Source of the DNA: Liolophura sinensis
Lineage: Eukaryota; Mollusca; Polyplacophora; Chitonida; Chitonidae
Length of the DNA stretch: 64,000 bases
NCBI RefSeq assembly: GCF_032854445.1
Contig: NC_088300.1
Span: forward strand, 5,456,001-5,520,000
Direction: 5' to 3'
Shown: positions 18,995-63,873 of the stretch, in pieces
Position numbering within the stretch: position 1 is the stretch's first letter
How the letters are laid out: each line of letters opens with the position of its first letter
Translations under genes and position numbers: made by a program
Notes under the pieces: model-generated
Seen by the model: the letters and a program-made list of their open reading frames with translations, nothing else
Database searches by the model: none
Told to the model about the DNA's origin: nothing

Positions 18995-19830
18995 ACTCTC
19001 CACTGTTACGACTGTATCCTCTTGTAAAGCTCGTCATAATAGACTACCAAGTATATGGCTTAGTGGTGTTGGTCATTCCACCACTGCATTGTTAAGTGTG
19101 AGATTGGTGTGGTATATACTCACTAGAAATTGTTTCCCTAGAGAGTGTGGTCAACTGTTGGCTTGGTTATATAAACAGACAAGTGATTGGACACTGCACG
19201 GAGGTGTATTGATCTCTAGATAGCCAGCAATTCTATCTAACGTCTGCAGCCTTAGACTCTAAATAATAGATTTACAATGATTTGCACCTATAGACCCTAA
19301 TGGTGTGTTATTCATTTACCTGTCCATGTACAGTTACGGCGATAGCCCTTTGGTCGCTAAACAAACGCCATATGCCCACCTTAGCCATGGGCTATGTTTA
19401 TTTCCCTGTGGATAACTATTTGGTCCCTTTCTTGGTTTCAGAACGGGCACGTGGAAAGGTACGAGCCCAGAACAAAGTCCCGTGATATGAGGATTTCTGT
19501 GAATGGCGAGGACAGAGAGATTAACATGTGACTTATTTCCTCAGGAAAGGACAGAAGTTAGTCGGAAGCCAGGCACGAGGCTTTGTGTCTACAGCACATG
19601 AACACTACCCTCTTACTCGACCATTCACGGATAATGCTTTGATGCTATTACAATTAGCCGATATTGATTATAAGGGGCAAGTAATGGCTGCCGGTGCTCA
19701 CTGACCCGCGCGTACAACCCCGACCCCGGACATATTGGGGGATTTTTCTGTGTGCTTTTCAGAGATTACATTTCCACACACGGCCAAATATATTCGACTG
19801 TGGTGAGGAGAACAGCAATAGTCAGGGAAA
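18995..19830. other. 5' flank of the 373-codon gene
   Basis: A plausible acceptor (TGCTTTTCAG ending at 19,760) precedes the open frame by 70 bp, so the start codon may lie in a second, partly untranslated exon. No first exon or core promoter motif could be fixed. Confidence 0.35.
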
Positions 19831-20952
19831 ATGCCTTCCCACTTACTCGGGGATATGGCTACAGACAGACAGGACTGTGGACAGGGCCAAAAAAGTAATG
19901 GCTTATTTCCTCTTATAAATCGAAATGGTTCTGTGGAGTCGCACAATGGAACGGATTCTGAGTCTCCCAGTGACTGCTCTACGACTCTGCACAGATCCAG
20001 GTCTGTGTCAAGATCGGTGTCCAATGCAACGAACAGAGACGGTCTGTTACGTCTGCCCGCCATTGACCGCTCTAAAACCAACAGTATTTGTAGCTACGCT
20101 AGCAGCAATATTAGCTCCGTGACAACGTCGTCACGCCATCAACCCGGTTTTAAAATGTCACAAATTAACATAAGCAACCCCAGGTACAGCCAAGACTTCA
20201 ACGGTCAAAATGATGCCGATAGAATCGAGTCAGTCACGCCACAGTTTCATCACGAGCAGAACGGAACTTTGCATCCTGGGCCCAGATATAAACGGACAAG
20301 TAACCGACCAGAAGAAAAGGGATCAGACCTTAAACTTCCTGATATTTTTTCTTGTAAAAATAGCTCCATCGGGTCTCCGATTCAGTCGCCCTCGCCAACG
20401 TTTCGCCATCACAGTAGAATGAGCAAGAAAAAGTCGGCGTCTCTTCAGGATCTGGCAGGACAACTCCGTCGAGAAGAAAGTGTTCTGGGTGAAAATAAAA
20501 GAAACTTCAACCACAACCCTAACAGTTGTGTAACGATAGAAAACCATGGTTACCATAGGAATGACACTGTTAATTCCCTGACCGTCCGGTCCAGCTTACC
20601 CACGCCTGTTTTATTCCCAATGAGAGAGACGGAGAGTCGATTGTCTAGAAAAAGCAAAAGTTCGGTGAAAAGAAACAAGGAGAAGCAACAACGGCGAGAA
20701 AACGATAACATGTTGAAGGAGAACGACTTTAAAGAAGTTATAGAAAAGCTCGAAGCCTTCTCAAATGTAGAAAACGGATGCGATGAAAAAGCTTCTCTGG
20801 TTATTGGCAAACCAAACGCATTGCAAAAAGTGGGTGAAGAAACAGAGATCGATCAGTACATTTATGCTAATGGTTATGAACATCCGAGTAAAACACGGAA
20901 AGCTCAAAAGCGAGCTCAGAGTGAGGATAGACGATCAGCCAAAGTGCATTAA
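19831..20952 (+). CDS. Uncharacterised basic, Ser-rich disordered protein (373 aa)
   Basis: A single uninterrupted frame of 373 codons starts at an ATG in fair context (GGGAAAATGC) and ends with TAA. An in-frame TAG at 19,819 makes this ATG the likely start. The protein has no signal peptide, membrane helix or fold I recognise. It is rich in Ser, Asn, Arg and Lys, with Ser runs such as RSRSVSRSVSNAT (about residues 56-68), a basic stretch SRKSKSSVKRNKEKQQRRE (about 271-289) and a short possible helix near residues 291-310. Composition suggests an intrinsically disordered, perhaps phosphorylated or nuclear or scaffold protein; that is inference only. At 1.1 kb it is by far the longest frame in the left 27 kb, which supports a real exon rather than chance. 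Confidence 0.65.
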   Translation: MPSHLLGDMATDRQDCGQGQKSNGLFPLINRNGSVESHNGTDSESPSDCSTTLHRSRSVSRSVSNATNRDGLLRLPAIDRSKTNSICSYASSNISSVTTSSRHQPGFKMSQINISNPRYSQDFNGQNDADRIESVTPQFHHEQNGTLHPGPRYKRTSNRPEEKGSDLKLPDIFSCKNSSIGSPIQSPSPTFRHHSRMSKKKSASLQDLAGQLRREESVLGENKRNFNHNPNSCVTIENHGYHRNDTVNSLTVRSSLPTPVLFPMRETESRLSRKSKSSVKRNKEKQQRRENDNMLKENDFKEVIEKLEAFSNVENGCDEKASLVIGKPNALQKVGEETEIDQYIYANGYEHPSKTRKAQKRAQSEDRRSAKVH

Positions 20953-28003: not shown

Positions 28004-31000
28004 CTACATAACTTGAACTCGAGATTCAATTTTCTTCTGCATTTCTTCAGACTCCAACTGCTCCACAGTGAGCAAGGAAAGTCCAAGCTGATCTTCCTGA
28101 AATACAGCAAACAGAATTATCTGAAAAAATCTTCCTGAAATACATTTATGATAAACTTATCTCATCTTCCTGAATAAGACTAAGCATAAAATTGTATTAG
28201 TTTCCTGAAATACACCAAACATAAATCGTCTTATCTTCAGGAAATACCTCAAACATAAATCTGTTTTACAAGAACAGATGAACTTCAATTTCCAGTACTT
28301 AATGTTTTGAATTCGTTTAGAAAAATTAACACATGGTCAGTGTATACAAAAGCGGATTTCACCCATGAGCATTAGATATCCCACTGATCATATGGCTACC
28401 AAAAAATGGAGATCTTGTCTGCGCACACGTCTCACCTTGCTAAAGGGCTGCGCCATCAGTCGGAGGAACCGTTTGGCTACCTGCACAGCTTCATCTACTG
28501 ATAAGTTACACAAACTGTCCTTCAAATGTTCCTGTATCCACTTGGGAAGTTTCCCACGCTTGTCTGCTCGTGCAAATCTCTGAAATTAACCAAAGGTCAT
28601 ATAGCAATGAAATCTCAAGGTGTTGTGTTACTTCTATGAGAAAGTGTACAGGTATAGAAAAAATATGTAATGCACTATAAAACACCCTTGGGCCGTACAT
28701 ACAGGTACAAAGATACATGTATTATGTTCAAGGCAATGGAAATAATTGAAAAATAGGTCATGGTCAGTGAAAATAAATAGGGTTCAGTTCTTTCCAATGC
28801 CAATGTGTGAAATGTTGTAGAAGTTTGGTAAATCTGGCGGCAAGCATTGAAGAAATAGAGTGGTTGCAAAGATGTGGACAGATAGAATGAGTAATGTAAG
28901 GAAATGATGGATATATTTTAAAAAATGTATGTCAAAGGATAATACAAGAACAACTGTTGGAAATATTCAATCATGTTTTACAGGTTAAGCAAATTACTCA
29001 CCTTGTCAGCAAACACCATGATGCCATAGTCAGTTTTTCCTCGTAGTGCTCTGCCCACACATTGTGCCCCATGTCTCATCGCATCAAATGTCAGGAAATC
29101 ATTCTCTCGGATTTGGAATTGTTCCCGCAGATATTCTAACCTGGCCTGTTTCCAAACAAAACCATTCAGATACAAACGAAAATGATAATTAGTTTTCTTC
29201 ACTTGGAAGATCAGATATATTTTGCAATGCCATGAAAGTTTTGTTACTAGTTTTCCTGTAATTATGCTTTTATTTACAGGCTATTAATTTGTTTTGCGAG
29301 AAAGCTGCGTGTTACAGCTGTAAACTTTGTACACATGTTCATTACCAAATTGTTTGAGCTACCTGCTGGAGTATAAAACTTCAACCACCTGTGACCCACC
29401 TTTTCAGCCATATTGGAGCAGAATGGAAATCTAAAAAAAAAAACTTCTTCTCCAGAAGCACTGATCTGATTATATTTAAAATTGATATGCATGTACAAGA
29501 CTACTGTGGGTATCAGGATTAAAAATTTTATGCAAATCAGTCGAGAAATGTGAAAGCTCGCTACTGGTCGTTTTAGTCACCTGATGACTTGTGGTTGAAT
29601 TCTGAAGAAACAAGATACAAATTAGATGTCGTTTGGATTGCTGAAGACCACCACGGTTTTAGTTTTTTCCTACGATGTATAACTTTTCTTTAAATTGCAA
29701 TTATAGCTCATATTAGTGTCATTTTTCAAATGTCACATGACCGGACACAGTAATAGCTATGTAGCTGAAAATTGGTCAGTAGATAGATCAACCTCAGCGC
29801 TTCATTTCTGACTGCACAGCTACGACCGATAGTTTGGCCATTAAAATGCATATAAAAACATGTTATTTTTATTCATAATCAGCTTGTAAAATTGCAGTAT
29901 CCCCAAAACCAGTAAAAACTTGGCAATTTTAATAGCCAACATATGAAACAGCTTTTAATGTTTCGTGCTGTTTGTTCAGTCACGTGATTTAGCTGCCATT
30001 TTGATTTTCATTGATACACTTAAACCATCTTTTTCCGTATATAAGCTAATGATCTTTCGATGAAACTTTACATGCAACTTTTAGGTGGATCACCGTAACT
30101 ATATTGTACAAAAACTTTTTGCTTGGTATCCAAAATGTGCTGTAACTGCGGCATGCAAAATGGTTACTGCAGAGAGCTGGCTACAGGGGGTGATTCTAAT
30201 TGTCTGGCGACAGGAACAGTAGATCAAAGGCATAATCTCTCTATAGACGTGGCCCAGCACTGCTATTTGAGAGCAATTTTTATTTTCTTTTCACTGTCTT
30301 TCACCATAGCCCCAATGAACATCACCCCTAGCAGTGTCTTGTTCAAATCCAGTTCATTCCTGCCAATCTCTTTTTTTTGGCAATTACCAGGAAATTATTA
30401 GGCACTAGACTACCAGTCCTAGAAGCCTGGGGTTCAAATCCAGTCTTCTCTTTATCTTTCTTTTTTTGGCACATAATATTTAGCAGTGTCATCTTCAAAA
30501 CCTACTAGCAATGCTGAAATAACTCACAAATCAAATACAGTTGCTACTTAACATAATCGAGAATAATAAATGATATGGACTGTACCGTGAAAAGCTGGGG
30601 CATGTTAACGTTGTAATCTTACTGTGACTGAACAAAGCGGGGTGGTGAACGCAGGTCAAATTTTACCAAATTCATTTCGTCTTTAAGTAAAGACACTACG
30701 GCTCATTTGTTGGCAATACGTCAGGTATTGCTGAAATAGAGATCTGCTTTCACGAAGGTACATGCAATTTACTTGTTCGGATAGTTCACTGCCTAATATG
30801 GCTTACCTGTTTTTTTCTTTGTATTAGAAAACCCTGTGGTTCTTTTCAGAAGAGCTTATAACTGATAGATTTGAACAGTCTATGGTGGAGAAAGTGGAAA
30901 ATTTTAAAAAGTGGATACTGAAAGCTCTGTGTACAGATTGCTTTGAAGCCTATAACTGCATGCAGTTCTAGTTTACATTACACTTGCAAGCAATTCGGAT

Positions 31001-34000
31001 TGGCAAGATCGACAGTATGCAAATTTAACCTCAACATCATTGAGAAAAAACTATCACCATGGGAAAAACGGTTTGAATCACATTGGTATTACAGACTGCA
31101 TATGAGTTTATTTATTTATTTATCTGATTGTTGTTTTATGCCATACTCAAGAATATTTCACTCATACAACGGCGGCCAGCAATATGGTGGGGGGAAACCC
31201 ACGACAATACAGCAGGCTGCCAGAAGACCTTCCCAAGGACGGCCTGAGAGGAGATTGGTGTTTGTAACATAATTTATATACATGTACATCGTATATACAC
31301 AAATGCTTTGATGCAAATAAACCACCAACTCATACCAAGCACACGCTACATGCAGTACAAGTACTTGTTCTAAGAATTAATGCAGTGGGGACTACTTCAA
31401 TTGTCAAGCCAAAGAGTGGAATGAGTTGATGGATACTGACATTTAGGCGATTATACAAGTAGCCAATCGTCTCACAGTTCTAATCTGTACTCTTTGGAGA
31501 GTACTTGTTATTGGCCAACAGATTTACGGACTATGACTGATCGGTAGTTACTGGTGTACACGTACAGCTAAGTAGGAAAATTCACAGGGTGTAACACACA
31601 CTGTATGGAGAGTCAAATATTGACTCCACATGAAAACATCATTATGTTCATGGAGACATAACACTACAAAGTGGCTGACTGAAGTAAGCATGTCTTCAGT
31701 TTAGCATGGGAACACTCCAAACTTTCCTATCCTCATTTTGTTAGACCTACATTACATGGCACAAAATGAATGTTTGGTCACAACAGAAATAAAGGCATTC
31801 AAACCTAACAATTAAACAGCCACTCCTTTAATACAGAAGTACAGTGACTCAAAATTGAGAAAGAAAACCCAAGGCAGACATAACATAATTTTTCTTACAG
31901 AATTATTCTTATTCAAAAGTTACAGAGACATACATGAAATATCAACTTATTTTATGGAAGTAAAACACAACCTCACTATTTTCATAAGTAAAGCCATTCA
32001 CACACCTGGTCCTATAAGCATATCCATGTAGATACAAGTACATACAGGTACATCAGGTCTAGAATTCAAACTGCTGCTGATTACATTTAGCACTGGGACA
32101 CACAGGTCCGGGTAAGTCAGGTGCATAAAGGCAATTAATGATAAATCAACACAGAAGAGCAGCCAGTAGATTAGAAACCAAAGAAAACTCTGTCAATCAA
32201 TTTCTCAAACAGAACCAAGAAAGTGATTTCAGTATTTACATGCAGCTGTAACAAGCCGTTTTATAAATATCTTTGTCTGTAGTCCACTGGGCAAATGTTT
32301 GACATTCTATCTTTCATAATGTGCTCTCAACTTAATGAGTGGCTCATTGGAAGACAACGCAAAAGCCTAGGTATTTTGCAGGATGTTGCAGCAGTTGTGA
32401 AGTTATGCTTGTTGAACATGAAAAATACTGAAATGATGCACATGACAACAAAACCTATGCATTTAAGATTGATTTTTTTTTTTTTTGATTGGTGTTTTAC
32501 GCCATACTCAAGAATATTTCACTTATACGACGGCGGCCAGCATTATGGTAGGTGGAAACCGGGCAGAGCCCAGAGGAAACCCACGACCATCTGCAGGTTG
32601 CTGGCAGACCTTCCCACTTACGGCTGGAGAGGAAGCCAGCATGAGTTGGACTTGAACTCATGCATTTAAGAGGACAGTAAGATGTTTTGATTTGTTCACT
32701 GAGATTCAGGTAAATACCTGTTGCACCTGTCAATACATGTATCTCCTGCCAATACAGGTAGTACCTGTCAATAAATTTAGTACTGGTCAATACATGTAGC
32801 CCCTGCCAATACATCTAGTGCCTGTGCTAGATGTATTGGCAGGGGCTACATGTATTGGTAGGTGCTTCCTCTATTGACAGGTACTACATGTATTGGCAGG
32901 TGCTACATGTATTGGCAAGGGCTACATGTATTGATGGGTACTACATGTATTGACATGTGCTACATGTATTGGCAGGGGCTACATGTATTGACCGGTACTA
33001 AATGTATTGACAGGTACTACATGTATTGACAGGTACTACATGTATTGGCAGGTGCTACATGTAGTACCTGTCAATACATGTAGCACCTGCCAATACATGT
33101 ACCACCTATTAATACATGTTGTACCTACCAATACATGTAATACCTGTCAGTACATGTTGTACCTGTCAATACATGTAGTACCTGTCAATACATGTATTAC
33201 CTGTCAACACATGTAGCACTTGTCAATACATGTTGTACCTGTCAATACATGTTGTACCTGTCAATACATGCAGTACCTGTCAATACATGTTGTACCTGTC
33301 AATACATGTTGTACCTGTCAATACATGTAGTACTTGTCAACACATGTAGCACCTGCCAATACATGTAGTACCTGTCAACACATGTTGTACCTACCTTAAG
33401 GATTCTGCTCTGTGTGTAGACATATGGAACTCCAAACATGACAACTGCACGGCCATAATGATGGTCTGAAAACACAAAATCTTACATTTACAGGTTGTAG
33501 TGTTAATGACATCGCAAACTTATAAACCTACTGTTTATCTCTAAACCACACAATAAAATCCCAACTTAAAAAACAAATATTTAATACACATAATTTTTAA
33601 AATATAGGAGTACAGATTTTCAGTTTTCAAACATGTCTGAGGAAAAGGATTTTGTTTCACTGTCAACTTTTCCTTTAAATAAAATACCAACGCTACTGCC
33701 TACATGTATAGACAAGAAGGTTTACCTGGTACTTTCAAAACAAAGAATACAGCTGCTCAGTCATAAATAATTCAAAATAATCTGTTACAACTTATAATTC
33801 ATCAGTGGATGCTCAGTTTTCAAGCCATGCACTCTGACACAAAAGCTAACAGAAAACACTACTTTTTTGTTAAAGGATGCATAAAAAGGTACCATAAAAC
33901 AAAGATTTTTGAGGCATATTTTGTATTTCTGAAGAGCCCCTCCATTTATGCATATTTTTCGTAAATGGTCAGAAATATTCGGTAATGACATCACTAGCGA

Positions 34001-35617
34001 ACATACTGAGAACCAGGTACCAGCTTAACACCCCAATTCACGCCCTCACTTCAACACAGTCTCTTTCTCACTTGCTCCAGCGATGATGTCACCTCAGCTG
34101 GCTACTTTATTTTCAGACTGACCACTGGGGCCTTAGTCTAAGTTATTTTTATGCCCAAAGAAAAGAGTTGGGGAACTTTTTTCTACTTTTATTCAAGTAT
34201 AATATGGAATTGTACAGGTAGTCTGTCTTATCATTTCTGGTACTTGGCAGATAACTTCACACACAGTCAGTAGAACTCCCAATAAACAGTTTTGACAGCA
34301 GACCTTCAGGCCCACTGCACACATGGAACATTTCTCATCTCGAAAATTTTAAAAATCAACACACACACACAAATAAATCAAAAACAAAATCTGAAATCAT
34401 ACTACCCTCAATACATATGGCTCTTCACATTTTCCATCCTTTATTTCAAACCTTCCAAATTCATTCTGAAGTCAAGAATATTTCCTAGTCCAAATCTATG
34501 TGTACTCACCAAAGTCGATTCCCTCTGAGACTTTTCCTCTGGCCACTGACAGCAGGACAGCACCTCTACCATTATCACAAGCCTTCAAAGTAAAATTACA
34601 GCAGACTTAGAAAACAATCTTCTTGCCCTGTATGAATACTTATTAATTAATCATATCAATGTGACATTTGATACCAATGTACCATACATATGTATAGAGT
34701 ACTCACACTGACAATGAATTCCTCCATGACCAACCTGACCATTTCCCGGATTCTGAGAGTTACATTGATTTTAGAAAGGTGTTTTGAGGTTTGCTTGGAA
34801 CAAGGAATGATATCTCTTGGAAAATTGTAAGTTTCAGCACCAAAAATAATACTGTGTGACATTTATTTGCCTCTAAGAATGCGCTTTTGCAGACAAAATT
34901 TTAGGTTATAAGGTATACATTGTCTGGAGTGCAGATGGTATGATGACTGTTTCCTGGAAGTGTTTCCACCTAACATATAACGGTTCTTCATGCTTTTCCT
35001 TCATGGAAACTCTGTCATAGACAAAGAAAAACAAATATTTCCAAATATGAACTTTTCCTGAATGTACATGTAATTTTTTGAAGTCAGCATTAGGTGAGGC
35101 TGGAATTAAGATAGTCTTGATCCCAGGTTGAGATCACATGGTTCCGAGGTTTGTCAGTTTGGGACAACTTGAAGGCACAACTTGTTGGCTCGCTCCCTGC
35201 CTTGGACACATCATTTTCAAGATTTCCCTCACCACCCACCACCCCCACCCCCAACCCAGTGTTCTCAGGTTGTTAAGTTACCAGCTTGTAGTTATTTGGG
35301 GTGAAAACCTGTGCATCACATGTGGGGAAGGTGGTCAACTACATCACAAGACTGATGGTTTACCTTTTTCTTTCCTCCAACGATAGTAGTGACCACTGCT
35401 GTATTAGGGTAAATAGTACTGTTGTAACTCGTGATCATGAAGTAAACATCAAGGAATCATTCATTTTAATATACATGTACATGTAGGTGTCTGTGTTTGA
35501 AGAAAAGCTGCCCTTGAATCTTACCTTTTGGTAATTGAGAAGAGCTAGACTTGTCTCTGCAGCATCTTGAGTCTCTATAAACAACAACTTATGTTTCTGG
35601 ACCTGGTCAATGATGCC
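28004..35617 (-). CDS. ERCC2: ERCC2 coding exons 19-24
   Basis: Exons: 35525-35617, 34510-34582, 33395-33465, 29002-29145, 28436-28579, 28004-28096. They encode residues 556-760: the rest of helicase domain 2 with [33 protein letters not shown] and motif VI, and the C-terminal tail, where XPD binds the p44 subunit. The tail ends IESRVQVM then TAG. Tandem arrays touch the exon 21 donor and the exon 24 acceptor (see repeats). Confidence 0.94.
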
Positions 35618-38600
35618 CTGAAACAAAACTACTGCCGTGTGAAAACAAGTATATTATGGATACAGCCAATCAACATCTTCATTTTCAAAGGTACATTGTA
35701 AGCAGATAAATATAAGGACAGCATATGGTTCCCTTATGTCAGCAAGGGGCATAAATCAACAAATTAGATTTGCAAAACATTCACCATTTTCACATTTTTA
35801 TCAAAAATAATTGAGTATACATCTGTGAAACCAGTGAAGAAGTTTTAGTATTCTATCACTTGCACATACAACCAGTCAGAAATCTGGAAATGCTCAAATT
35901 GTAAGGAAAATTTAGTAAACTTTCTATAATTTCTCAAGAAATGTTAATTTCATTTAGCCAAAAATATATATTGAATTCCAAATGGATCCTTGAAAGTTTT
36001 ATCTCTGCAACATTTCCTCAATACACATATGCACTGAAGACATTGATTTTCTGTGCCTAACATTTCTCTTTTCTTTCATAAAATATGAACATACATAAAA
36101 ATGCATATAAATATGAATATATGCATACATCTCTTAACTACTTCAATTCTTTTTTTGCACATATGACTAACTCAGTGCATTTATTACCTTCACCTAACTA
36201 TGTACATTTAGATACCAGGTGGAGTACTTTATACATTATCAAAGATCTTGTGTGATTATAGTCTGAGAATCTCTTAATATCTACTGCAAAAATAAATCAA
36301 TTTTTGAGAGTTGACTTATATGTGGTAATCAGCACACGTAAATGTAGCCTAATGGAATATCAGTGATCTAAGGCGAAATCATGCTTTAGAGCGAGATTTG
36401 CAGGTTGTCGGATAGACCAGTGTTAACGTGTCAGTTCTATCATTTTGAATTAATTCACACCGAGAAGTAGGATTTTGCATTACATGAACTGTATCTGAAC
36501 CTAACTGTTCTGTATCTATATCCTGATCACTCCCAATGATTTAACTGCGCCAATAAATTTGAAAATCCATTTCACCTCACCCATTTCACCTCACCTCACC
36601 TAAACATGTAACAACACAGGTTTATTCTAAGCTAGCTGTAACCTTTTTATAAAATTATGACCGAAAATAAGACCAACAGAAAAGAGGCAAAAAATGGAAT
36701 TTTGTATGGTAAAAATACATGCACTTTTCACAAAGAGCCAAGCATCTCAGAGCTACAATAATTTACATTTCACAGAAAAAAAAAACAAGCACATCAGATT
36801 TCTACGGGATTTACATAATTTGCATATATTAAAAATAAACACAAATATTGTAAAATCAGATTGGACCACATATCATGCTATTCAGTAAATATCAAATTTC
36901 ATTTTTTGATAATATTTTCTTTTGTCCAAAAAAAAGCCACTAATAACTTCACAGAAACTGCATGGAGAAATTTAAAGAATGACAGGGTTTTGAACTTTCA
37001 TCTGTTTCTGGATCAAGGCATGGGTGTTCCTCAAGAAGAGATGTGAGCACATTCTTTCGTGTTCTGTTGTGTGAGAAAACATAAAGCACACAACTAGACT
37101 CCCCAAGCCAACAAACTTCAGAAAAAGAAAGCAAGAAAAAAAACACGAAATTTTGTCACCGGTAATCTGTATTATGTATTCATCATGGAATCATGTCACA
37201 GGGTGAACATGGTTAAGACCAGGCACCCATGGAAATACTGATGTCTGTCAAGGACACTTGTGTTTTTCTAAAGCTTATTGTTTGATAGCCCCCACACCTA
37301 CCCCCAAGCTGACACAGTCTTAAACACAGACCAGACACAATGGCAGTTAACCAGACAGCTTTTTGTCTAAAAAGAGACTGAAAAAAGTTCACAGTAACAC
37401 CAGCAAGGGAACATTTTTCATGCCTTTGCCAAGGTCAAGGCTGAAAAAGGGGCTTTAAATACTGAGAGAGCATTGAGTGTTGCTCAGGAGTGAAGTGACC
37501 GCTGCGGAGCTGATACCACTATCTGACCAGTCCACTGAATAACTGAGGTACTGAGACCAGCTTTAGACTGACCATTTGGAACTGTCATCTTGTGAATAAG
37601 AACAACAAGGGAACTAAGACCATGGACAACCAAGACTTCAAACCTACCCATGCTCAAGCATTCAGTGAACTCTGTCAAGTTGTAGGCCCAACAGAAATGC
37701 AAGAAATTCTGAACAGCTACAATAAGTGTCCTACTGGAGGTCATGCACACATGAGCAGTCTGTACGGGGCAGTACATCAGCAGAGCTTCTCTCAGTACCA
37801 ACAAGCGGCAGTGCCGGAAGCCACCGACAGCATACTGGCATTGGACATGTACGACCTTTACACAGGTAACTGCTATGATTACCGAGGTGCCGAGGGGTCG
37901 TACTGGTCACAGAGCTGTACCTCACCTGTACAGTATAGCACTGTCAGTGTACACGCCCAACACGCCATTCCTCCAAACTTCCAGCAAAACAGCTTCCAGC
38001 ACCAGACCAGCTCTCCGTACAGCTGTGCTGGTTCCATTGCTCCACACTCAACACCATTCTCCTCCAATCCTAACAACCTGTACGCCAACTATCCAATTCA
38101 GCCTTCCATGAGAACCGCTTCTGTGGCTCCTCCCACGGCTGAGGAAGCAACATCTGCTTCGATTAACCACTGTGGAAGAAGATTGCGGACAGTAAAGCTG
38201 ATCAGATCAGAAACCCACTCAACCCATGAGCCAGTAGATTCCAGGAGATGTCTGATGTCAGGACTTCAGTCTTCTCCTGACCTTAGCCCAGCCGTGAACT
38301 CTGACCTCCATAACCTGACCCCAAACCAACTCACCCCAAGTCGACGGTCCTTAACCAATGAGAGCCTCAACGACAGTGGCTTTGGCTCTGAGCTTGGAAC
38401 ACCACCCCCTTTGAACAAGGAACAGAAAACGGTAAGAGCTTTTTCTTTAACAACAAGGATCCACTTTTACAGAACTTAGTAAATCAACTTTTGGCAACTT
38501 TCCTCGTAGATCATATTATCTTTACATGTCACTAACACTTATAGCCCATGCCTTAACTTACAAACAAGTCACCAGAAATAAGACTAACAAGTCACCAGAA

Positions 38601-41600
38601 ATAAGACTAACAAAGTTTTGTGAAAGTGGACCCGGTAATTTTAACATGTATATTTGTGCAAAAACGTTTCAGAGCCAAGGAATCTTACATTGTAAACTAT
38701 TTTTGCCTTCACATGAGATCGTCACTGTATCTGCATGTAATGTGACACTAATCCTATTCTTCAAGTACTGTCCCTTTTACGTGTTAACATTTGCAAGTAT
38801 CTGAAAACACTGTGGCCAGTGTGGATTGCCAATCATGGAATGATTTTGATTTGGGGTGGCTAATTAAGAAACGATTTTTATAGGCCTGACCAAGCTGGTG
38901 GTACCAGTATTCCCATACACATATAGGCCTAATTGACAGATCAATATAAAGCATTAAGAAAACTTTATGTAACACTATGGCAAATTGTATGGTAAAGAAA
39001 TATTCACAGCATACTCAAAAATCTAAAAAAGCATTTTAAACTTCAGAATAAGAACTAGTCCCATTAGAGACAACTGCTCATTCCACTGTCATTTTAGGAA
39101 GCCTCTTCTAAACCTGTTCTACACCTGACCCCCTCTCCTCTCCTACAGCTACAGTCCTGTCTCATCAGCTCCACAAGCAGTCCGCTATCCTACAGCCTAC
39201 CCTTAACACCGGTTAACAAATCCCTGACACCTGAAAACAAACCTGCAGAGGATGTCAAGCCTATATTGGACATCAAACCATCTAAGAAACGCCCCGCATG
39301 TGACATGCCCATCAACCAACCTAATGGCAAGAAAACTCGGCACAATCAACCTCTCAACAACAACGCTGTCAGCATCATGCAGAGCTGGTATGATTCACAC
39401 AAGCACAATCCTTATCCAACAAAAGAGGAAAAGAAAACGCTAGCCACCATGGGTGGCATCTCTGTTGCTCAAGTCAAGTCCTGGTTTGCCAACAAGAGAA
39501 ACCGAAGCAACAACACCCGTCCCAAGGTCGAGAAGCAGAAAATGGAACAGAAACTTCTCCACATCTGTAAGCAGCTGGCATCCGACAACAAGCGGCCTCA
39601 AGAAACCAATACACTGATCATAAACCAACTGTCTTCTCTCCTGCAAGCTCAGGGAAACTATGTGTAAGGTAACTATCAACTCTGGCCTCTGAGCTCACAT
39701 CAAATATAGTGCTATTATACGTTTGCTGTCACTACATCACACAGGTTTAGTGTATTTCTTATGCTTTGCATCTGATATACCTTCATACAGTCAATGATTT
39801 TTGTTTGCATTTTGTATGGTGATTGTCCCTCTCTTCGGTTTCCTCGTCACTCCTTTGACAGCAAACATACAGAGTTGTTTTGTTGTGTTTGTGTGAGTAT
39901 GGCTGTGTGCTTGAATTGTATGGGAGAACGTCTGTGATAAATTATTAAATCTACACGTGGCCTTCAACACACTCTTTTGTCACACACAGATACTGTCTAG
40001 AAATGTAAAACAATTTTAAACACTGGGATACTCCACGAAGTGCTAGCTATCATCAATGTGGGACATACAGTGAGATGTAAGATCAGTTATTTACCATTAT
40101 TTTGCTTTTGAATGTTTCTTTCTCTGTTTTAACTGATATATGGGCAAATCCACATTAAAGAGGGCATTGATCGAAATTACATAATCTGGATAATGTATTT
40201 GGATCATGTATTTCAATCAGTATCTTGCCCACTTATGCCAAAATGCGAACACCTTTAGCCCTGAAAACTGAGGTTTTTCTATCACACTGGTTCACTGTAC
40301 ATACTCATAGACACTTTCGTCTTTTTCCATCCTAAGCTGTCTGCTGCCACTATATGTATTTTATGAAATTTTACAAGTTTGTTTTTACATGATTGCATGA
40401 ATAGTGCTACTTTTTCATACAATTCATCAATATGACAAATTGTTCTTATTTAGATATATGGTTATTTTATGCATTAGCTTTGTTACCTAGCAATGTTTTG
40501 GAAAGTAAATATACATAATTATATTTATGAGAAAGATTTGTGCGATTTATATGAACTAATTTATTCTTGTTCAGAGTTTGATGTGCTATGAAGTAACTTG
40601 TGAATTTTACAGTTTTGGGGAATGTTTTTAATGTATTTAAATAACTTTTTGTCACTTTTGGTTATAACAGTTTTATCACAAAATAAATTTCTTAAAACCT
40701 GTCTGAAGAACAATCTGTTTGGGTTTCTTTTATTTTATTATACAAAATTTCCAGTAGGTGAAGGTGCTCTTGTACCTCTTGAAACCGAGTGTTTGAATCA
40801 AACCTGCACTGTTTCATCATGGACTTTGATAGTGAAAGTCGTCAGATGTTGTGTGAACTCTTGTGTATCACTGATCTAAATACACATTTGAATACTGTAA
40901 CAAAGGGGCAAAACTGCGTGTACATTCTGTCCCCATACATTATGTCACCTTGTAGAGACACAACACAGACAATGTGTGTTGTAGAAAGTTTCTTGAATAT
41001 AAACTGGCCCCGATAGCACAGTTGGTAGAGCATCCGCTTCGGGAGTAGTAGATCCAGGGTTAAACCTGGGTTGAGTCACATCTAAGACCTTAAAAGAGGA
41101 AGTTGTAACTTGGCATTCAGCATGATGGGGATAGTGCAATGACCGGTTGACCTGTATCAGTATAATGGCTCGGCCGGGCGGCTTACTTGCCTTTGATAAG
41201 GCGTCTCAGTGAAGCAGCACTAGACAAAAGAGTGATGGAAATCCGTCCTGCAACAAGGAGGCACATCGCATGCACTCTAAGGATGCCTTAGTAGTCACAT
41301 GACTCAAAAATTATTAAGTACAATTTTAAGCCCCAAGCACTCACTCACTCATGAATATAAATGTAGGCTATTTCACTAATGTGTCTGCTGTGATAAACTC
41401 TGCCTTGACCTTAGTATGTCTATCAGGTGAAGGAGAAAATGTTACGGGATGGTTTACACTGTCAGCCAGAACACACAAACAAAGAGAAATGACTAATATT
41501 CAGACAGAAGCTGTAATACATGCATACATGTCGTTAAAAAATGCACCCCATGATCAAAAGTAAGAACATGCTCTCTTACCAAACACTGTCCTCCCACAGA

Positions 41601-44600
41601 GAGCTGCTCTAATCATCGTGGCTAAAACTCACACTTGGGCTTACGGGTGAAAAGTATGTGTACATCAAAATTTCTCAATTCTTCCCAGTCCTGTTTTCTG
41701 GTTACAAATAAATTATTTATAAGGAAAGTTTCAAATGTCCTAGCTTATGCTTGGACACATAACTCACCTGCTCATACCATGATGCCACAATGGATTCCTG
41801 GAAAACAATAAAAAAATCTTTTCAATAATAAAGTCAAGAAAACTTCATGTATGCTTTTAACTACACCACATTCTCGCACAGACTGATGTTACATAACTGT
41901 GTACACAAAACAAGTAAGAATGTAAACCTGAGAGAAAATGTTTTCAGTTGAACAGTTTTTAGGTGAGAGCATATCGATCTTTGTGTCCCAACACACAAAC
42001 TTAAATGAAATAAAACTTTTAATGATGTCGAGGAAAGTTAAAGAATTCTTGGGTTTGTGGTAAATGCACAACACAAATACTACTTTATACATGCTATACA
42101 TTTTTGTCACTGTGATATTAACCCTTACCATGTATACATAGCTGGTGAAGAAACAGACAAGGCCATCTGGTACAATAGTAGCCAGCTCCACCAACAGGTT
42201 GCCATAGTTACGCACCACAGCTGGATAAATGATGAAAAATTTATGCTTTGTAAGCAGTTTTAACTGATTTACACCAGTTGTATTGTCTAGTTTCTATGTT
42301 GGTGTAAAAAAACAAACTTCAAGTATGAGAAAACCATGACTGAACAAAATTGTTCCATATGCTACATTAAGCCATTATGTATCTGTTGTGAATACTTGTA
42401 AATGGCATAGGCTCACATAAATTTTAATTATTAGGTAATTTAAGAGTAATTAAAGTGTATTTATTTTACTTCATGTTCAATTCCATACTCCAGAATAAAT
42501 GTGTAGATGTTTCACCCGTCATACACTGAACTGTTGCGTGAAAACCATCATATTTTGATGGGCTCCTATCTAACTTCTGGCTTAAAATTGCGACAAAAAC
42601 AGATGGAGAAAGATTCAAACATGCAAACAATTGGTCAAGAGCTGACTGTCTTCCTGGATAGCCCATTAAACAACTTTATAACTAAAAGGGGGTCAAAATA
42701 TTTAGAATTAATCAATGAACAAATTACCTATGTCCTCCCTTGTTTCATATTTTGATGAAATGGCCACCTGATCATTCCCCCGACTTACTATCTGAAATGG
42801 AAAGACCACACAATTTCTATCAACAGTAATAACCCCTAATTGTGACTAGTATACCTGAGAACACAACTCATCTTACTATGAAAGAGAAAGACTGGATAAA
42901 ATTATCTTTAAACTTTATCTCTTGAATTTAAAATAAAGCTGGGAAACACAGTCAAAGACCCTTTTCAAAGTTGACCGCTTGAAGTAAAAAAAAAGTCATC
43001 AAAAATCATAAGATTATTTTAAAACCCTTGAATTCAGGTCTTTCCTTGGGCCTTTGTCCTTAGTACAAAACTGCACACAGTACAGTGAACTTAATCGGCA
43101 TGGCCCTACATCACTTGTGGTTTTCAACCACTACTGGCTGATTACATGGATTAAAATATTGACATGTACCTGTCAGAGCCCATTCAGGGTATATAAGTCA
43201 CACTGTGGGTTTACATAATATGTAGCCTAAAGAGCTGAATTACTGCCACACAGTAAGCATGACAACTTCCACTGATGTTATTTTTCTTTGTGACGCTGCA
43301 GTCCATTTATTTATTTGATTGGAGATTTACGCCGTACTCAAGAGTATTTCACTTATACGATGGCGGCCAGCATTATGGTGGGTGGAAACCGGGCAGAGCC
43401 AGGGGGAAACCCACGACCAACCGCAGGTTGCTGCCAGACCTTCTCACGTACGGCCGGAGAGGAAGACAGCATGAGCTGGGCTTGAACTCACAGCGACCGC
43501 ATTGGTGAGAGACTTCTGGGTCATTACGCTGCGATAGCGCGCTAACCAACTGAGCCATTTGAGCCCCGCTGCAGTCCATAAAGTGTCACACAACTATATC
43601 AGTGTTGTCTTTAGAGGACATGACTAGCATGATTTTTCTTATCTCAGCTTTACATATACAAAAGAATGCTTTTCTACTTGATAAATATTGTAGGCACAAT
43701 ATCATTATCATGCTATTGAGAATAGCATTTGGGCTTTAACTGGGAGTGATATTTTAACCACCGAGTTAAATAGATTCCCCAACATCAAAGCCTGTGTATG
43801 AATGATGGCTCCAGCAGGCTTTGTGGTCAAGTGGTTGACAGATAAAAGTACTTTGTATACTTGATTCCCTCCACCTGATCACCACAAGATTACCAATCAA
43901 GGACAGGAATTCACAGGAAACACAGAAAACTCCATATTTAATTCCATTAAACTCACCATAGGACAAATACACACTCTTGACAATGACATGGTAAATGTTG
44001 CCATGGTAACCGGACGGAAGTCCAGGATTTTAGGATACATGTCTAATGGGGAGAGTGTCTGGAAATAAAGACAAAACATCTCTGAATGCAGAGACACATC
44101 TAGGTTAAGTATTGCCCAAGATCGAGTTGTGCATGTAACATAAAATTACAGTTTATGATTTCTTGTTTACGGTCAGAAACCTAACTCTTCAATAAGTTAA
44201 ACGCATCAACAAAATTCATACACATATATTTTATGTCAGAAATAGCTGAAGACTTATCAGCCGTATTTCACGAAGTTGAAGCAACTGAGGCAGTAATACA
44301 CTTTTAAATGATGTTTACAACACAGGAATTGTAATTTAGCACTGATGACCAGAATTGTTGATGTTCAAATACATTGTACACAGCATTAGCATAGGTATCA
44401 GCTCTTAAACCAATGCTCTCAATCTCACCAAAATTTTAGCTCCTAATCAAACTAGATCAACTGGTCACATACTGGTACAATGATGGATTCATGTCATAGC
44501 TCCACAGCTGAGAATTCCTGAAAACTCTCACCCCCGAAGTGACGACGACTGTCTGGAATCTATCAAAAACTGGCTTGACAGCGATGGAGGCATCCAGACA

Positions 44601-47600
44601 GCTGAACTGAAGGATGGGGTTGGAGATGGTGGGTGTGCGGTCATCAAACGGTTCAATAATCAGCGTGAAACCTGAAACACAATCCATATGCATGACCAGG
44701 CACAGGGCAGAGATGGCCACTTAACAGGGATGCACATACATGCACATGTACTGTATATACATCATATATCACTGGAGATGGCCAATGATCCAAGGCATTT
44801 CAGTGTTCAATTTATCATAATTTCTTTGCATGAATTCAATCTGAAATGACTTTCTAGTTGCAAAAAAATGATTTCAATCCAGGGAGTATCTTGATTTTAA
44901 ATCTGAACCTGGAACTTCCACTTAAACACTAGGCACACCTTTCAGCAATCTACCACAAAAAGCAGATCACGAAAACTGGAAAGAATTTTATAATTTAACG
45001 AGTGCCCAACTCTTTACCTTGAACATATGTACTAATCAGTGTAGCAAAATGAGCTACTGCCGTTAATGGTGAGAAGTCTTGTAGGTCCGACAGTTCTAAT
45101 GTCCGCATCAGGGAATGTAACCTCTCAGCACAAAATCTGAAACAATGAAATCATTATACAGGTGTGGCTGTAAGTAAAATGTTCACATTTACTATTTGAT
45201 ATTTACACCATGCTACACTCAGTACTTAGTTTTTGTTTATTTAACTGCATGGTGTTTAAAGCCATAAAAACCTTTCAAAACCTTTTCACTTATACAAGAC
45301 AGTGGTCAACTTTATGAGTGGAAGAAACCAGAGTGCACAGGACAAACCAGTGATCTTCATCAAGTCCTTGACAAGCTGCCTGGGTCACAGCTAAGCTGAT
45401 GACCTTTGCCAGGTGCCTGTTAACCCTCCTGATTTAAAGCTACAGCTGGATCCAGTAAGAAGATTCAGGTGTACAACCTTGATGATCCAGGGACAATAGG
45501 CTGCAACTCAACGTGCATATAGGATTGGGTCACTGGATGATCAATGCATGTACATTATGCCTCTCCAGGCAAGCAACGATGTAGTACCACTTGCTTGGCA
45601 TACAGGTACCACTCGCCAGATATGTAAATACCACTCACCAGACATACAGATATGACTCACCTGATACAAGCGGCTCTCAAGATAAACAGGTATGACTCAC
45701 CTCAATGGTTTTCTCTCTATACACACGCGTGCTGCACAGTCTTTCAGAAAGGATGGAGGACTTTCTGCTACAACATGTTGTACTCTCATCCGTGTTTTCA
45801 GATACTCCAAAAATCGTTTCATGAAGCTGAGGAAATGGTCAGCCTTTCTGATATTTCCAGGGACGGATCCTGAGGAAAAAAGAACATCACCCATGAATCA
45901 ATTTCATATCATTTATTTCACACAAGCATGTGCAAACAAACAAAATTTTGCATTTTCAAGACGGTACAGGTATAAACAAATTCAATTTGTATTAAAATTG
46001 TATATCTGGCTGGTCCAGAAACCTCATGAAGCTTTCAATATACCTGTATACATATATAATGTTATCTATCTTAACACATCCAGAGATGGTAATTTATCCT
46101 ATGAGAAAATTCATCAGAATAAAAAAAAATTTTAACACATCATCCTATGCGTTTTATTCAACAATCCAGGTTTTGAAGCATTTTTTGGCTGACAATGAGG
46201 GTTTCTAGACAGACTGCCTTTTCTTCAGGTTACCCTGTAGAACCTGGTCCGGCAGTACAGGATTAGCCAGGACCACATCCCCCTCCCTGGCCAGATTGGC
46301 TTCTCTCAAGCCCTCTACAAGTTGGTCATATTCTTTTTCTAGTCTCTGTGAGTCTGCTTGCTTCAAACTGCAAAATAAGAAAACACAAAAATAGTACAGT
46401 AGTCTTTTAGTCCCATGAGTCAACACTAGTCCCATTTATTTATTTGTTTATTTGATTTGTGGTTTAGTGTACTCTAGGATATTTCAATTATACGACAGTG
46501 GCCAGCATTATGGTGGGAAGAAACTGGGCTGAGCTCGGGGAAACCCACGGCCATTTGCAGGTTGTGGTCCCATTGAAAATACATATTCCTAAAAATACTT
46601 ACAAATATCCACATTTGGCTATAACCTGCTGTACATACCGATGAATTTGTTGGCTGAGAGTTTCCAGATTTTTCTGACATTTGTCCAGTGTTTTCCTCGT
46701 AAGGTACACACTCATGGATTCTATACAAACATTATCTGAAATTAAAATACACAGATTCTCTATCACAAAAAAAAAAGTTGACATGAATTTTTCTTTATTT
46801 ACACATCCAAAACCAATACTGGCATCAATCACCTGTTTGAGATGAACTATTTCTACTACTTATATGGACTTTTGTACATATACATGTATACATGTAATTA
46901 CAAAAAAAACATGACATTACTTTTTCCATCCTGTCAAGCATGCACATTACCAAACGTCTAACATAATCCATTAACAATAATTGATACAGACCGCAATTTA
47001 CATAGCAACTGTCTACAGTTTCATGAATATTATTTTCACTGGCAACACAATGTGTAAAATGCAATCTGACAATATTAGAACGATATATACCGACACATCT
47101 GATAAATTTTTCCTTGAAATCAAGACATACACAGTTACTAATGCAAATATGCTATGAATTATGCTAATTAATAAAGCTGCAATCACAGCCTTTATCAATC
47201 AAACAATTGACTTCAGTACTTACCAATGTTATGCGCTTCATCAAACACAACCACAGACTGTTTTGCCAACTCCTTAGAAACCATATTGGCAATCTTTGGA
47301 TCCAGAAGGTAATAATAACTGTAGACCACAATGTTGGCATGGGTGATCTGGAATCCATTAAATGACAACAACGTGATTTTTAACATGTGGTTGTGTGGTT
47401 GTGTAATGAACATTTAGACTCCCTTTATTTAGAAAACATATATCTGAGCACAGTTTTGCTATTCCTTGGAGTTAATGTTTGACCACGAAAACATAGTGAA
47501 ATTTAGTTCAGCTATTCTGTGCCCAAGTATCACTTTACAGACAAAAGAAGAGAAACTGCAGACTTCACTGGTTCAGCCTGGTTAATGTCCTGATCTTGTA

Positions 47601-50600
47601 ACCAACAGGCCTTGGGCCAATGACGTAGTTGGTTTGGTACGTCGCCAACCAGTGTGGTTCTTTAGGGATTTGCTGCATTTCCTCTACTTTCAATCTTGAC
47701 CTCTGCAGTATGCGTGACATACAAAGAAGTACGTTTCCAGTGTCAACATATCTTTGGTGCTGCCTCACTAGCATGCCATGCTCCTTCTGGTTTATACAGT
47801 ATAGTGAGTAACACCAAGCAGTACACTACTTCAGCCATCCTCTTTATTATACAGGTTTGATCATAATGTTTGATTTATCCACAACAGCATCATATTTATC
47901 ACTTCTAGGTGTATGGGGCCATCAATTAAAAATCCATTCATCAGTAAACGAGAATGCATCTCAAAAATACTGACCGCATGTCTGGCCAGGAAATAAGGGC
48001 AAAGATTATGTCTTCTGCCATATTCTTTAAGCTCGTCCTGCAAGAGACAGTATTAAAACATCACACAGAGCAAAGATACACTATGTAGACCTTTTGAAGA
48101 TATGAATTCAGAGCTGCATTTCATGTTAAAGTGGAAATAATAAACATTACTGCTTTAGTAATGTCAGTCAATAATCAGAAAATATCATCACCTGTTGGCA
48201 GTGATAACATGATAACTGTATACCTATTCAAACTACCGTGGCAACATGATCTAGCTGACATGTGCATTACAACAAAGTAACAATTCCAGCAAAACTATCT
48301 TTATCACAACCACATGAATTATTACACGGTTTTCAGCCCATTAAAATACAGTCCTCATTTAAACCATAACAAAACATTTTTTATTCTTACAAGCAATAGG
48401 TGGTAATATTATACAACTTCTAAAACAGCATTTAAATTGTCAAGACCGTATACCACAACAGATAACTTATAAATCAACCACGATAACCCTGCAGTCAAGA
48501 GTTATCTCTCTTCCCATCAGCTGGAGGATCAGTATTCTCAAATAAACAGTAATTTAGTAAATGAAACGCTCATCTTACCAGACCATAGATTCCTGACGGT
48601 AAGATTGTGTCTCTGCCCACAGCTTCAAAGTTCTGCAACAGACAGGAAACAGTACTGAACATGACACAACCAGTAGTACAAATAGTACTCTATGGTTAGT
48701 TGTGGGGCAGCTCTGAGATCAGTTGGTCATGTTGCCTGCGTTGTCCTGTAAGTGTCAATGCTGTACGCCACAAAATGATGTGTTCCATGAGTTTAAAGTA
48801 ATTCTGAATTTGTATCACCTCATTTTACGGGAATAATAAAGACCGTACCATTGCAATTAATACAAATGTAGCCAACACATCCATTCAGACAGCATCAGAA
48901 CCTGGCAAACTGCAAACACGTGACTCTGTTGCTATGGTGAACTCGGTTGCTCTTTCCAAAATTAAAGAATTTAAAGTACGAACTCCTAAGCAATTTGTCA
49001 ATCGTCCTTTTAACTGTGTATCTCATTGGTTTCAATCCAATCGTTCGACGAGTTTATTTTTTCCGGAAGATTCCGAGTGGGCTGGCTCAAACTGAAAATG
49101 GCGGTTGGCGAAGTTTGGCTCGCTGCCGATCCGCCAGGTATATTTGTGATAATTATGATGTTAAATGGTCTTTGATCTGAGTTTAACATTACTACAGGAT
49201 TAGAGAAGACATGTCTTTGTGGCATACAGCCTTCACATATTGAGGACAGCACACTGGAAAAGATCGAATTCCAGGTTGATGAATGGAAGCGTACAGATCT
49301 GTATTTCTGGAAGATAAGCTGGGAATCATAGAGCAGATCTCAGATGATTAGAAGGATGAGATTGCTGGGAAATCTAGTGATGATGCTACGTACCAATTAT
49401 ACTCTTTACTATTACATGCTATAATTATACTCTGTTACTGTTGCATGTTACAATTATACTCTGTTACTTTGGCATGTTACAATTATATTCTGTTGATGTA
49501 ACATGTTACTATCATACTCTGTTACTATGACATGCCATAATTATACTCTGTTGCTGTAACATGTTACGATTCTACTCTGATGCTGTGACTTGTTACACTT
49601 ATACTCTGTTACGATAACATGCTACAATCACACTCTATGACATTCTAAGTTACTCTGCGTGATCTTCACAACAATTGGTTGTGAATGGTCTCTTGTTTTT
49701 CTATGAGGGAACCAACTTGAATTTGGGATCTATTCCAGTTATAACATGAATTAATCCTGTAGAAGACATTCTTTTCTTCTTAATTTTTGGACATAAATTT
49801 AATGTGAAGTCAAAGAAAATACCAGAACACAAGTTACATGTCACAGAATGACATTATTTACCATGTACAAAAATCTCACCTCAAAATAGTCACAAATAGG
49901 CACATTAGGGTCATGTTTGTTTCGCTGTCTGACAAAGGAAGCCGTCAGTGAGTGACAACGACTGTCCACCACCTTCCCGTCCCGATTCTGACTCACCTAG
50001 TTAGCATATCAATAGGAGCATTCATTATTGCAATAACAGCAAGTCCCTGTCATATTCAATTCAAAAAATTGGCTTAAACTATACTTACAAAATATGAAAC
50101 AACAGGTACTTTGTGCTTTAAAAGTAGGAAGATTCGAGTTCTAAACACTGCCTGTGTCCATGTATGCCATAAAAAGACATTTCACATGCTTCACATCTGA
50201 TCCTGACATAGCAGACATGCATACCCACAAGAGCCACAATGAGCAATGCTGTCCATTGTTTTTTCACTTCCTTCACCTACATGTATTTGCCGGGACTTTT
50301 TCTGTAAGCACAAACCAGTCCTGTGTTCATGTTACCTGTGGGTGAATACAGAGGTTTTTCCTTGAACTAAGAGCCAGTCCAAGTATATTGTGGCTTTCTC
50401 CTGTCATCTTCTCATAATATTTCATCAACTCGCTCAGTTCCTCTACCACCTAGAACAAATCAAATTACATTCGCATATCACCATTTTGCATGTTAAATTT
50501 GACAAAAATACATTATGCTTGTATCTACCTGCACCAATGGGATTGAATGGTGGCTGTATTGCTGGCTGAATGAGGAAGCATTTTCACTTGCTAACCAGCA

Positions 50601-52465: not shown

Positions 52466-52726
52466 TTTCTCGATCTGCAATTAATAACTCTACTGCAGAC
52501 CGTTAAAAAAACAAAAATTAGCAAGAAATGTCTGAAGTTGGCCTGGTTTTCTGTCCATCAGTTTATTTACCGGAAGCACGTGTTGCTTTCGCTATCGTTT
52601 GTTAATGCGCCTGCGTGGTATTCTCCATGACTAGCGTATGAGACGAAATACTGCGTTTATAAGAAACTTTGTCAACATAAAGGCGATGAGTGGAGAGTGT
52701 GGGACAAAGCTCATGGCTGTTTGGGG
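52466..52726. promoter_or_regulatory. ERCC2-PEX6 bidirectional promoter
   Basis: Only 261 bp separate the two start codons. In the middle, an ETS site ACCGGAAGC (52,569-52,577) overlaps a palindromic E-box CACGTG (52,577-52,582), and no TATA box is visible for either gene. This is the usual architecture of divergent housekeeping pairs. The ERCC2 5' UTR and a 5-nt coding part share exon 1 to the left; the PEX6 leader is at most about 145 nt if transcription starts near the motifs. Confidence 0.7.

Positions 52727-52730
<4 letters not shown>
52686..52730 (+). CDS. Short upstream ORF overlapping the PEX6 start
   Basis: An ATG at 52,686 opens a 14-codon frame whose TGA overlaps the PEX6 ATG as ATGA (52,727-52,730). 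It would be translated only if the leader begins upstream of 52,686. Such a frame could dampen or couple PEX6 translation by reinitiation; that effect is inferred. Confidence 0.35.

Positions 52731-63873
<11,143 letters not shown>

What the first reader, a model, noticed from the sequence alone, without database searches (positions are those of the whole stretch)
37454..39667. SPILE-like TALE homeobox gene nested antisense in ERCC2 intron 18
The recognition helix [12 protein letters not shown] and lack of MEIS/PBC/IRO boxes set it apart from the ancestral TALE families; spiralians have an expanded TALE set (SPILE) used in early embryo quartet patterning. A zygotic-type regulator with a TATA-like box inside a constitutively transcribed repair gene, in opposite orientation, raises the question of transcriptional interference in the early embryo.
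Basis: partly seen in the sequence, partly recalled or inferred. Interest (0 to 1): 0.7.

Follow-up and report, generated by a model that had tools for sequence, protein, structure and literature searches.

The report
Homeobox gene inside ERCC2 intron
An intact gene for an unusual TALE-type homeobox regulator sits, in the opposite direction, inside an intron of the DNA-repair gene ERCC2; it looks like a real but fairly ordinary nested gene, and whether it belongs to the spiralian SPILE group could not be tested here.

Summary
ERCC2 lies on the minus strand: exons 2-24 were rebuilt with GT-AG junctions and one open frame (759 codons; 563 identities to recalled human XPD), plus an exon-1 candidate. 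Intron 18 (35618-41767) wholly contains, on the plus strand, an intact gene with two coding exons (ATG 37622, stop 39667; 440-459 aa depending on the acceptor) and one TALE homeodomain (Pfam Homeobox_KN 5e-14).

The homeodomain is too divergent for an ordinary canonical TALE orthologue (best identity 25 of 62, PBX1; PBX1 and fly EXD share 59) and Pfam gives no other domain. Trees place it nowhere firmly: weakly with PBC (77/81, 74/83), IRX and MKX not rejected. No SPILE sequence, host genome or species label was reachable, so 'SPILE', 'spiralian', 'zygotic' and 'interference' stay untested. The TATA-like octamer is about as common as chance. Opposite-strand nesting is common among nested genes (63% in human, cited in PMC3192792). 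Verdict: a real, divergent TALE gene; new member of a known kind.

The parts
37454..37461 (+). TATA-like octamer TTTAAATA upstream of the TALE gene
   Evidence: Sequence; 10 copies in window vs 7.46 expected by chance: not evidence of a promoter by itself
37622..38431 (+). TALE gene coding exon 1 (270 codons); no Pfam domain; the 348 residues before the homeodomain core are rich in S, P, L, T, Q, A, N
   Evidence: Open frame, start context, GT donor; no Pfam hit; codon score
38432..39097 (+). Intron of the TALE gene (alternative in-frame acceptors end it at 39148 or 39154)
   Evidence: GTAAGA...TTTTAG; three acceptors keep the frame
39098..39667 (+). TALE gene coding exon 2 with the homeodomain, helical C-terminal tail and stop
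   Evidence: Pfam Homeobox_KN 5e-14; predicted homeodomain fold
39329..39517 (+). TALE homeodomain, residues 348-410 of the 459-aa reading
   Evidence: coordinates computed from residue number in exon 2
39944..39949 (+). First polyadenylation-signal-like hexamer (ATTAAA) after the stop
   Evidence: Pattern only
35618..41767 (-). ERCC2 intron 18, 6150 bp, containing the whole TALE gene
   Evidence: Spliced reconstruction of ERCC2, numbering with the exon-1 candidate
28004..52465 (-). ERCC2/XPD host gene, 24 exons including the exon-1 candidate
   Evidence: tblastn with recalled human XPD, splice model, phmmer to XPD chains E=0

Best explanation
An intact, divergent, single-homeodomain TALE transcription-factor gene nested antisense in intron 18 of ERCC2. 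Its protein most likely binds DNA through the third homeodomain helix (N51 and R55 kept, A50 as in IRX/MKX, K52 as in PBX, unusual N54) and acts through a long, probably disordered N-terminal region and a helical C-terminal tail. It most likely belongs to one of the spiralian-expanded non-canonical TALE clades (SPILE or a neighbouring clade). The nesting is most likely neutral: a separate gene with its own promoter and polyadenylation site. Shown: gene structure, class, nesting. Inferred: DNA contacts (homeodomain numbering recalled), spiralian clade, disorder, independence from the host gene.
For: Intact frame across two coding exons with usable splice sites; Homeobox_KN 5e-14; the three-residue TALE loop, absent from the EN and SIX1 rows, is present; fold matches PBX1/EXD best by E-value (PBX1 1puf_B 9.4e-5; EXD 4cyc_B and 1b8i_B 1.0 A over 57 columns; MEIS2 3k2a 0.6 A over 48); 25/62 identity at best (PBX1) while PBX1 and EXD share 59; no other Pfam domain at E<=1; ERCC2 exons surround the gene in order. 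Spiralians carry many orphan TALE genes (PMC6118893, PMC8524836, PMC5322547; sections or passages).
Against: Species not known; no spiralian TALE sequence compared; no transcript; exon 1 has no recognised domain and codon usage supports it only weakly; both 11-row trees put the gene weakly with PBC (77/81 and 74/83), and in the 15-row tree a PBC grouping is as likely as the best tree (p-AU 0.501).
Confidence: 0.75

Rival explanations
1. A SPILE gene proper (clade A/C, D or E), expressed in early cleavage and specifying quartets. This is a narrower form of the best explanation, not exclusive of it.
For: A single divergent TALE homeodomain without another Pfam domain fits the published A/C, D and E clades; the E clade lacks PADRE (PMC8524836).
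Against: No SPILE sequence compared; host not shown to be a spiralian; non-SPILE spiralian TALE genes exist (PMC6118893). The two homeodomains of clade B are not seen: one only in this gene model, no second match in the window.
Confidence: 0.4
2. A fast-evolving derivative of a canonical family, most likely PBC, less likely IRX or MKX.
For: PBX1 is the best PDB sequence hit and PBC the weak sister in both 11-row trees (77/81; 74/83), not rejected in the 15-row tree (p-AU 0.501); IRX and MKX not rejected (p-AU 0.13 to 0.246).
Against: Only 25/62 identity to PBX1 while PBX1 and EXD share 59; no PBC domain by Pfam; A50 and N54 in place of G50 and I54 (alignment).
Confidence: 0.2
3. Head-on transcription of the two genes makes a regulatory switch (transcriptional interference) in the embryo.
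For: Opposite strands within one intron; PMC3192792 (passages) reports nested genes perturbing host transcripts, and cites that some nested genes correlate negatively with their host.
Against: No expression data here. [quoted passage not shown] for protein-coding pairs the paper looked at tandemly arranged ones.
Confidence: 0.07
4. Pseudogene, retrocopy or misassembly.
For: No transcript evidence; weak codon-usage signal.
Against: Intact frame with an intron, no N runs, ERCC2 exons complete and in order on both sides.
Confidence: 0.05

Closest known systems
SPILE / spiralian orphan TALE clades (Paps 2015 TALE I-IX; Barton-Owen 2018 I-XIX; Morino 2017 as cited; Phuangphong 2021 clades A/C, B, D, E)
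   Same: Divergent TALE homeodomain, no canonical companion domain by Pfam, alanine at position 50 (I/A/G listed for TALE in PMC5322547)
   Different: Clade not determined; PADRE domain not testable; expression unknown; the two-homeodomain form (clade B/TALE-IV) not seen
PBC family (PBX/EXD)
   Same: Best PDB sequence hit, NKR at positions 51-53, best fold match by E-value
   Different: 25/62 identity to PBX1, no PBC domain by Pfam, A50 and N54
IRX and MKX families
   Same: A50 and the NPYPTK..EK stretch (alignment)
   Different: 22 (IRX1) and 24 (MKX) of 62 identical; K52 not A52, N54 not R54
Opposite-strand nested genes
   Same: Small gene wholly inside a host intron on the other strand; common in human (PMC3192792)
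   Different: No difference found; this host and guest pair was not found in the paper searches made

Membership tests
TALE-class homeobox | Homeodomain with three extra residues between helices 1 and 2 | tested here: met
   Alignment with EN and SIX1 rows, which lack three residues there; Homeobox_KN 5e-14
SPILE | Homeodomain falls in the SPILE clade | not testable with these tools
   No SPILE letters reachable; two scans with this gene's own domain found no relative in prokaryote genome or viral contigs; papers read give no sequences; supplements not open to me
[quoted passage not shown] not found in E) | not testable with these tools
   No Pfam family matched exon 1 or the region before the homeodomain; the PADRE alignment is in a supplement
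SPILE clade B / TALE-IV | Two homeodomains | tested here: not met
   One homeodomain by Pfam in this gene model; no second match of the protein in the window
SPILE | Early quartet-specific expression in a spiralian embryo | not testable with these tools
   No expression data, species unknown
PBC | PBC domain N-terminal to the homeodomain | tested here: not met
   No such Pfam hit at E<=1 on the 459-aa protein
PBC | Homeodomain grouping | tested here: inconclusive
   Weak sister, 77/81 and 74/83; p-AU 0.501
MEIS/PKNOX | MEIS domain and homeodomain grouping | tested here: not met
   No Pfam hit; grouping rejected, p-AU 0.018, 0.021, 0.042
TGIF | Homeodomain grouping | tested here: inconclusive
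   Rejected under the mixture model (p-AU 0.012, 0.022), not under LG+G4 (0.116)
IRX | Homeodomain grouping | tested here: inconclusive
   Not rejected (p-AU 0.212, 0.131, 0.201)
IRX | IRO box | not tested
   No search made for it
MKX | Homeodomain grouping | tested here: inconclusive
   Not rejected (p-AU 0.13, 0.148, 0.246)

The most novel reading that the evidence does not exclude
A SPILE-type cell-fate gene has been captured in an ERCC2 intron in its lineage, and head-on transcription with this TFIIH-subunit gene couples early zygotic activation of the fate gene to expression of the general transcription machinery.
Probability: 0.03. Interest if true: 0.75.

Novelty: new member of a known kind. 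Interest (0 to 1): 0.3.

Why it matters
Orphan TALE genes of spiralians are hard to survey (PMC6118893, says three searches of the Capitella genome each produced a different set), so a clean gene model inside a conserved host gene gives a positional marker: the ERCC2 intron can be checked in other genomes for orthology that a 63-residue homeodomain tree cannot settle.

Tried and rejected
Whole-genome search for sibling TALE genes: not possible, no genome held. Relatives in prokaryote genome contigs and viral contigs: none confirmed (65 and 4 pattern matches, none a relative); plasmid and phage collections were not searched. Peptide strings of the recognition helix in the paper library: none. 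Identification of the species by an interspersed tRNA-SINE-like repeat (nine copies aligned): a 38-base exact core was not found in genome or viral contigs; the three sequence strings were not in the library (its 10 hits were for SINE names; passages of one, PMC11121367, seen). I recall such repeats from molluscs, but that is untested. A paper search on homeodomain positions 50 and 54 gave nothing. DSGFGS at residues 251-256 fits a recalled beta-TrCP degron pattern; 0.345% of 20,000 shuffles of the region before the homeodomain hold the strict pattern and 1.655% a looser one, but the pattern was picked after looking, so it is only a lead (one search gave one paper, not opened). Rfam and tRNA scans of the window: no hit. 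Four recalled corepressor or HOX-cofactor patterns: none in the protein. In the 114-aa piece at E<=10, two DUF models also hit below their cut-offs (0.017, 0.02); taken as chance.

Full report
Host gene. A recalled human XPD sequence matched the minus strand of the window from 52033 to about 28025 in order (one further weak hit on the plus strand at 20132, E=2.6, holds a stop and was dropped as chance). A splice-aware reconstruction, which allowed only GT-AG introns, gave exons 2-24 with one open frame of 759 codons and 563 identical residues in a 760-column alignment; phmmer of this protein hits XPD chains with E=0. Exon 1 is a candidate by pattern only: ATGAA|GTGAGTA at 52465, in phase with exon 2 (a second pattern match at 52977 lies within the neighbouring plus-strand open frame). 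The intron between exons 18 and 19 is 35618-41767, 6150 bp, the longest of the 22 measured (next 4249 bp).

Nested gene. Inside that intron, on the plus strand, an ATG at 37622 opens 270 codons to a GT donor at 38432. Three AG acceptors (exon 2 from 39098, 39149 or 39155) keep the frame, giving 459, 442 or 440 residues to the stop at 39665-39667. The open stretch of exon 1 (310 codons) is longer than any in 500 single-base shuffles of three times its length (maximum 221), but codon-usage scores support coding only weakly, and one antisense frame of exon 2 scores higher though it holds 8 stops. The TATA-like octamer is there, but the window holds 10 against 7.46 expected.

Protein. At E<=1 Pfam finds only Homeobox_KN (5e-14) and Homeodomain (1.1e-7) in the 459 residues; exon 1 alone gives nothing at E<=10. 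PDB sequence hits run PBX1 (1.5e-11), EXD, PKNOX1, MEIS, TGIF, then other classes (60 of 95 rows shown). A single-sequence AlphaFold model of exon 2 has mean pLDDT 65.7 and pTM 0.36; over the homeodomain the ten-residue blocks 81-130 score 77-95, block 131-140 66. It has helices 88-100, 109-119 and a long one, 123-162. Foldseek ranks PBX1 1puf_B first (E 9.4e-5, rmsd 4.0), EXD next (1.0 A over 57 columns), with PKNOX1, TGIF1 and MEIS close behind. Alignment to recalled canonical sequences shows the TALE loop, A50, N51, K52, N54, R55 (numbering recalled).

Placement. In a 15-row tree no branch was starred and the gene stood alone; holding it with PBC cost nothing (p-AU 0.501). In 11-row trees it joined PBC with 77/81 (mixture model) and 74/83 (LG+G4), not starred, on an end branch of 1.86 or 1.21 changes per site. 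Grouping with MEIS/PKNOX was rejected in three of three tests, TGIF in two of three, IRX and MKX in none of three.

Literature. SPILE genes fall in four molluscan clades; A/C, D and most B carry a PADRE-like region, B has two homeodomains, none was found in E (PMC8524836: abstract, Background, first part of Results, one methods section). Barton-Owen 2018 lists TALE I-XIX, calls six regeneration-transcriptome sequences non-SPILE, and reports SPILE monophyly with low support (PMC6118893: TALE results, first part of the Discussion, passages). Paps 2015 passages describe the PADRE domain and early expression of 12 of 14 novel oyster TALE genes (PMC5322547). An annelid study reports over ten unclassified TALE genes rising early (PMC12550047, passages); a review lists dicyemid TALE groups outside known families (PMC6543705, passages). 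For nesting, PMC3192792 passages cite 63% of human nested genes on the opposite strand, some negative correlation with hosts, and a study with no correlation. A search for ERCC2 with nested gene, intron and antisense gave one paper, on human transposable elements by its title, not opened; none of the 20 papers listed (of 23) held ERCC2.

What it probably does. A sequence-specific DNA-binding regulator; most likely a member of the spiralian orphan TALE radiation if the window is spiralian, which is not shown. The nesting is most simply neutral.

Changes after checking: the p-AU range, pLDDT blocks, array coordinates and the list of non-SPILE clades were corrected (TALE-V was taken out, since PMC8524836 puts it within clade A/C); results against the reading were added (the tied PBC test, the codon score between acceptors).

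Noticed in passing
52631-54148 and 62112-62357 (+): A 505-codon stop-to-stop open frame begins about 170 bases from the ERCC2 exon-1 candidate, head to head, with no Pfam or PDB hit. Further on, a 43-residue piece matches type II AAA ATPases; PEX6 is matched over its full length (7.3e-11), though CDC48/p97 score higher over 33 residues. Possibly a PEX6 gene divergent from ERCC2.
   Followed up: partly
31107-31199, 32468-32660, 43305-43537, 46434-46564, 55753-55980, 60518-60759 and others: A tRNA-SINE-like repeat, nine copies aligned, some partial, with a conserved 3' core; the exact core was not found in genome or viral contigs.
   Followed up: partly
19822-20949 (+): A 376-codon open frame without a Pfam domain above cut-off.
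   Followed up: no
38372-38389 (+), protein residues 251-256: DSGFGS, a recalled beta-TrCP degron pattern in the TALE protein; may mean regulated turnover.
   Followed up: partly
62266-62619 and 62857-63225: Two 30-base tandem arrays (11.8 and 12.3 copies) next to the putative PEX6 piece.
   Followed up: no
41768-41797 (-): ERCC2 exon 18 is only 30 bases long, directly upstream of the host intron.
   Followed up: no
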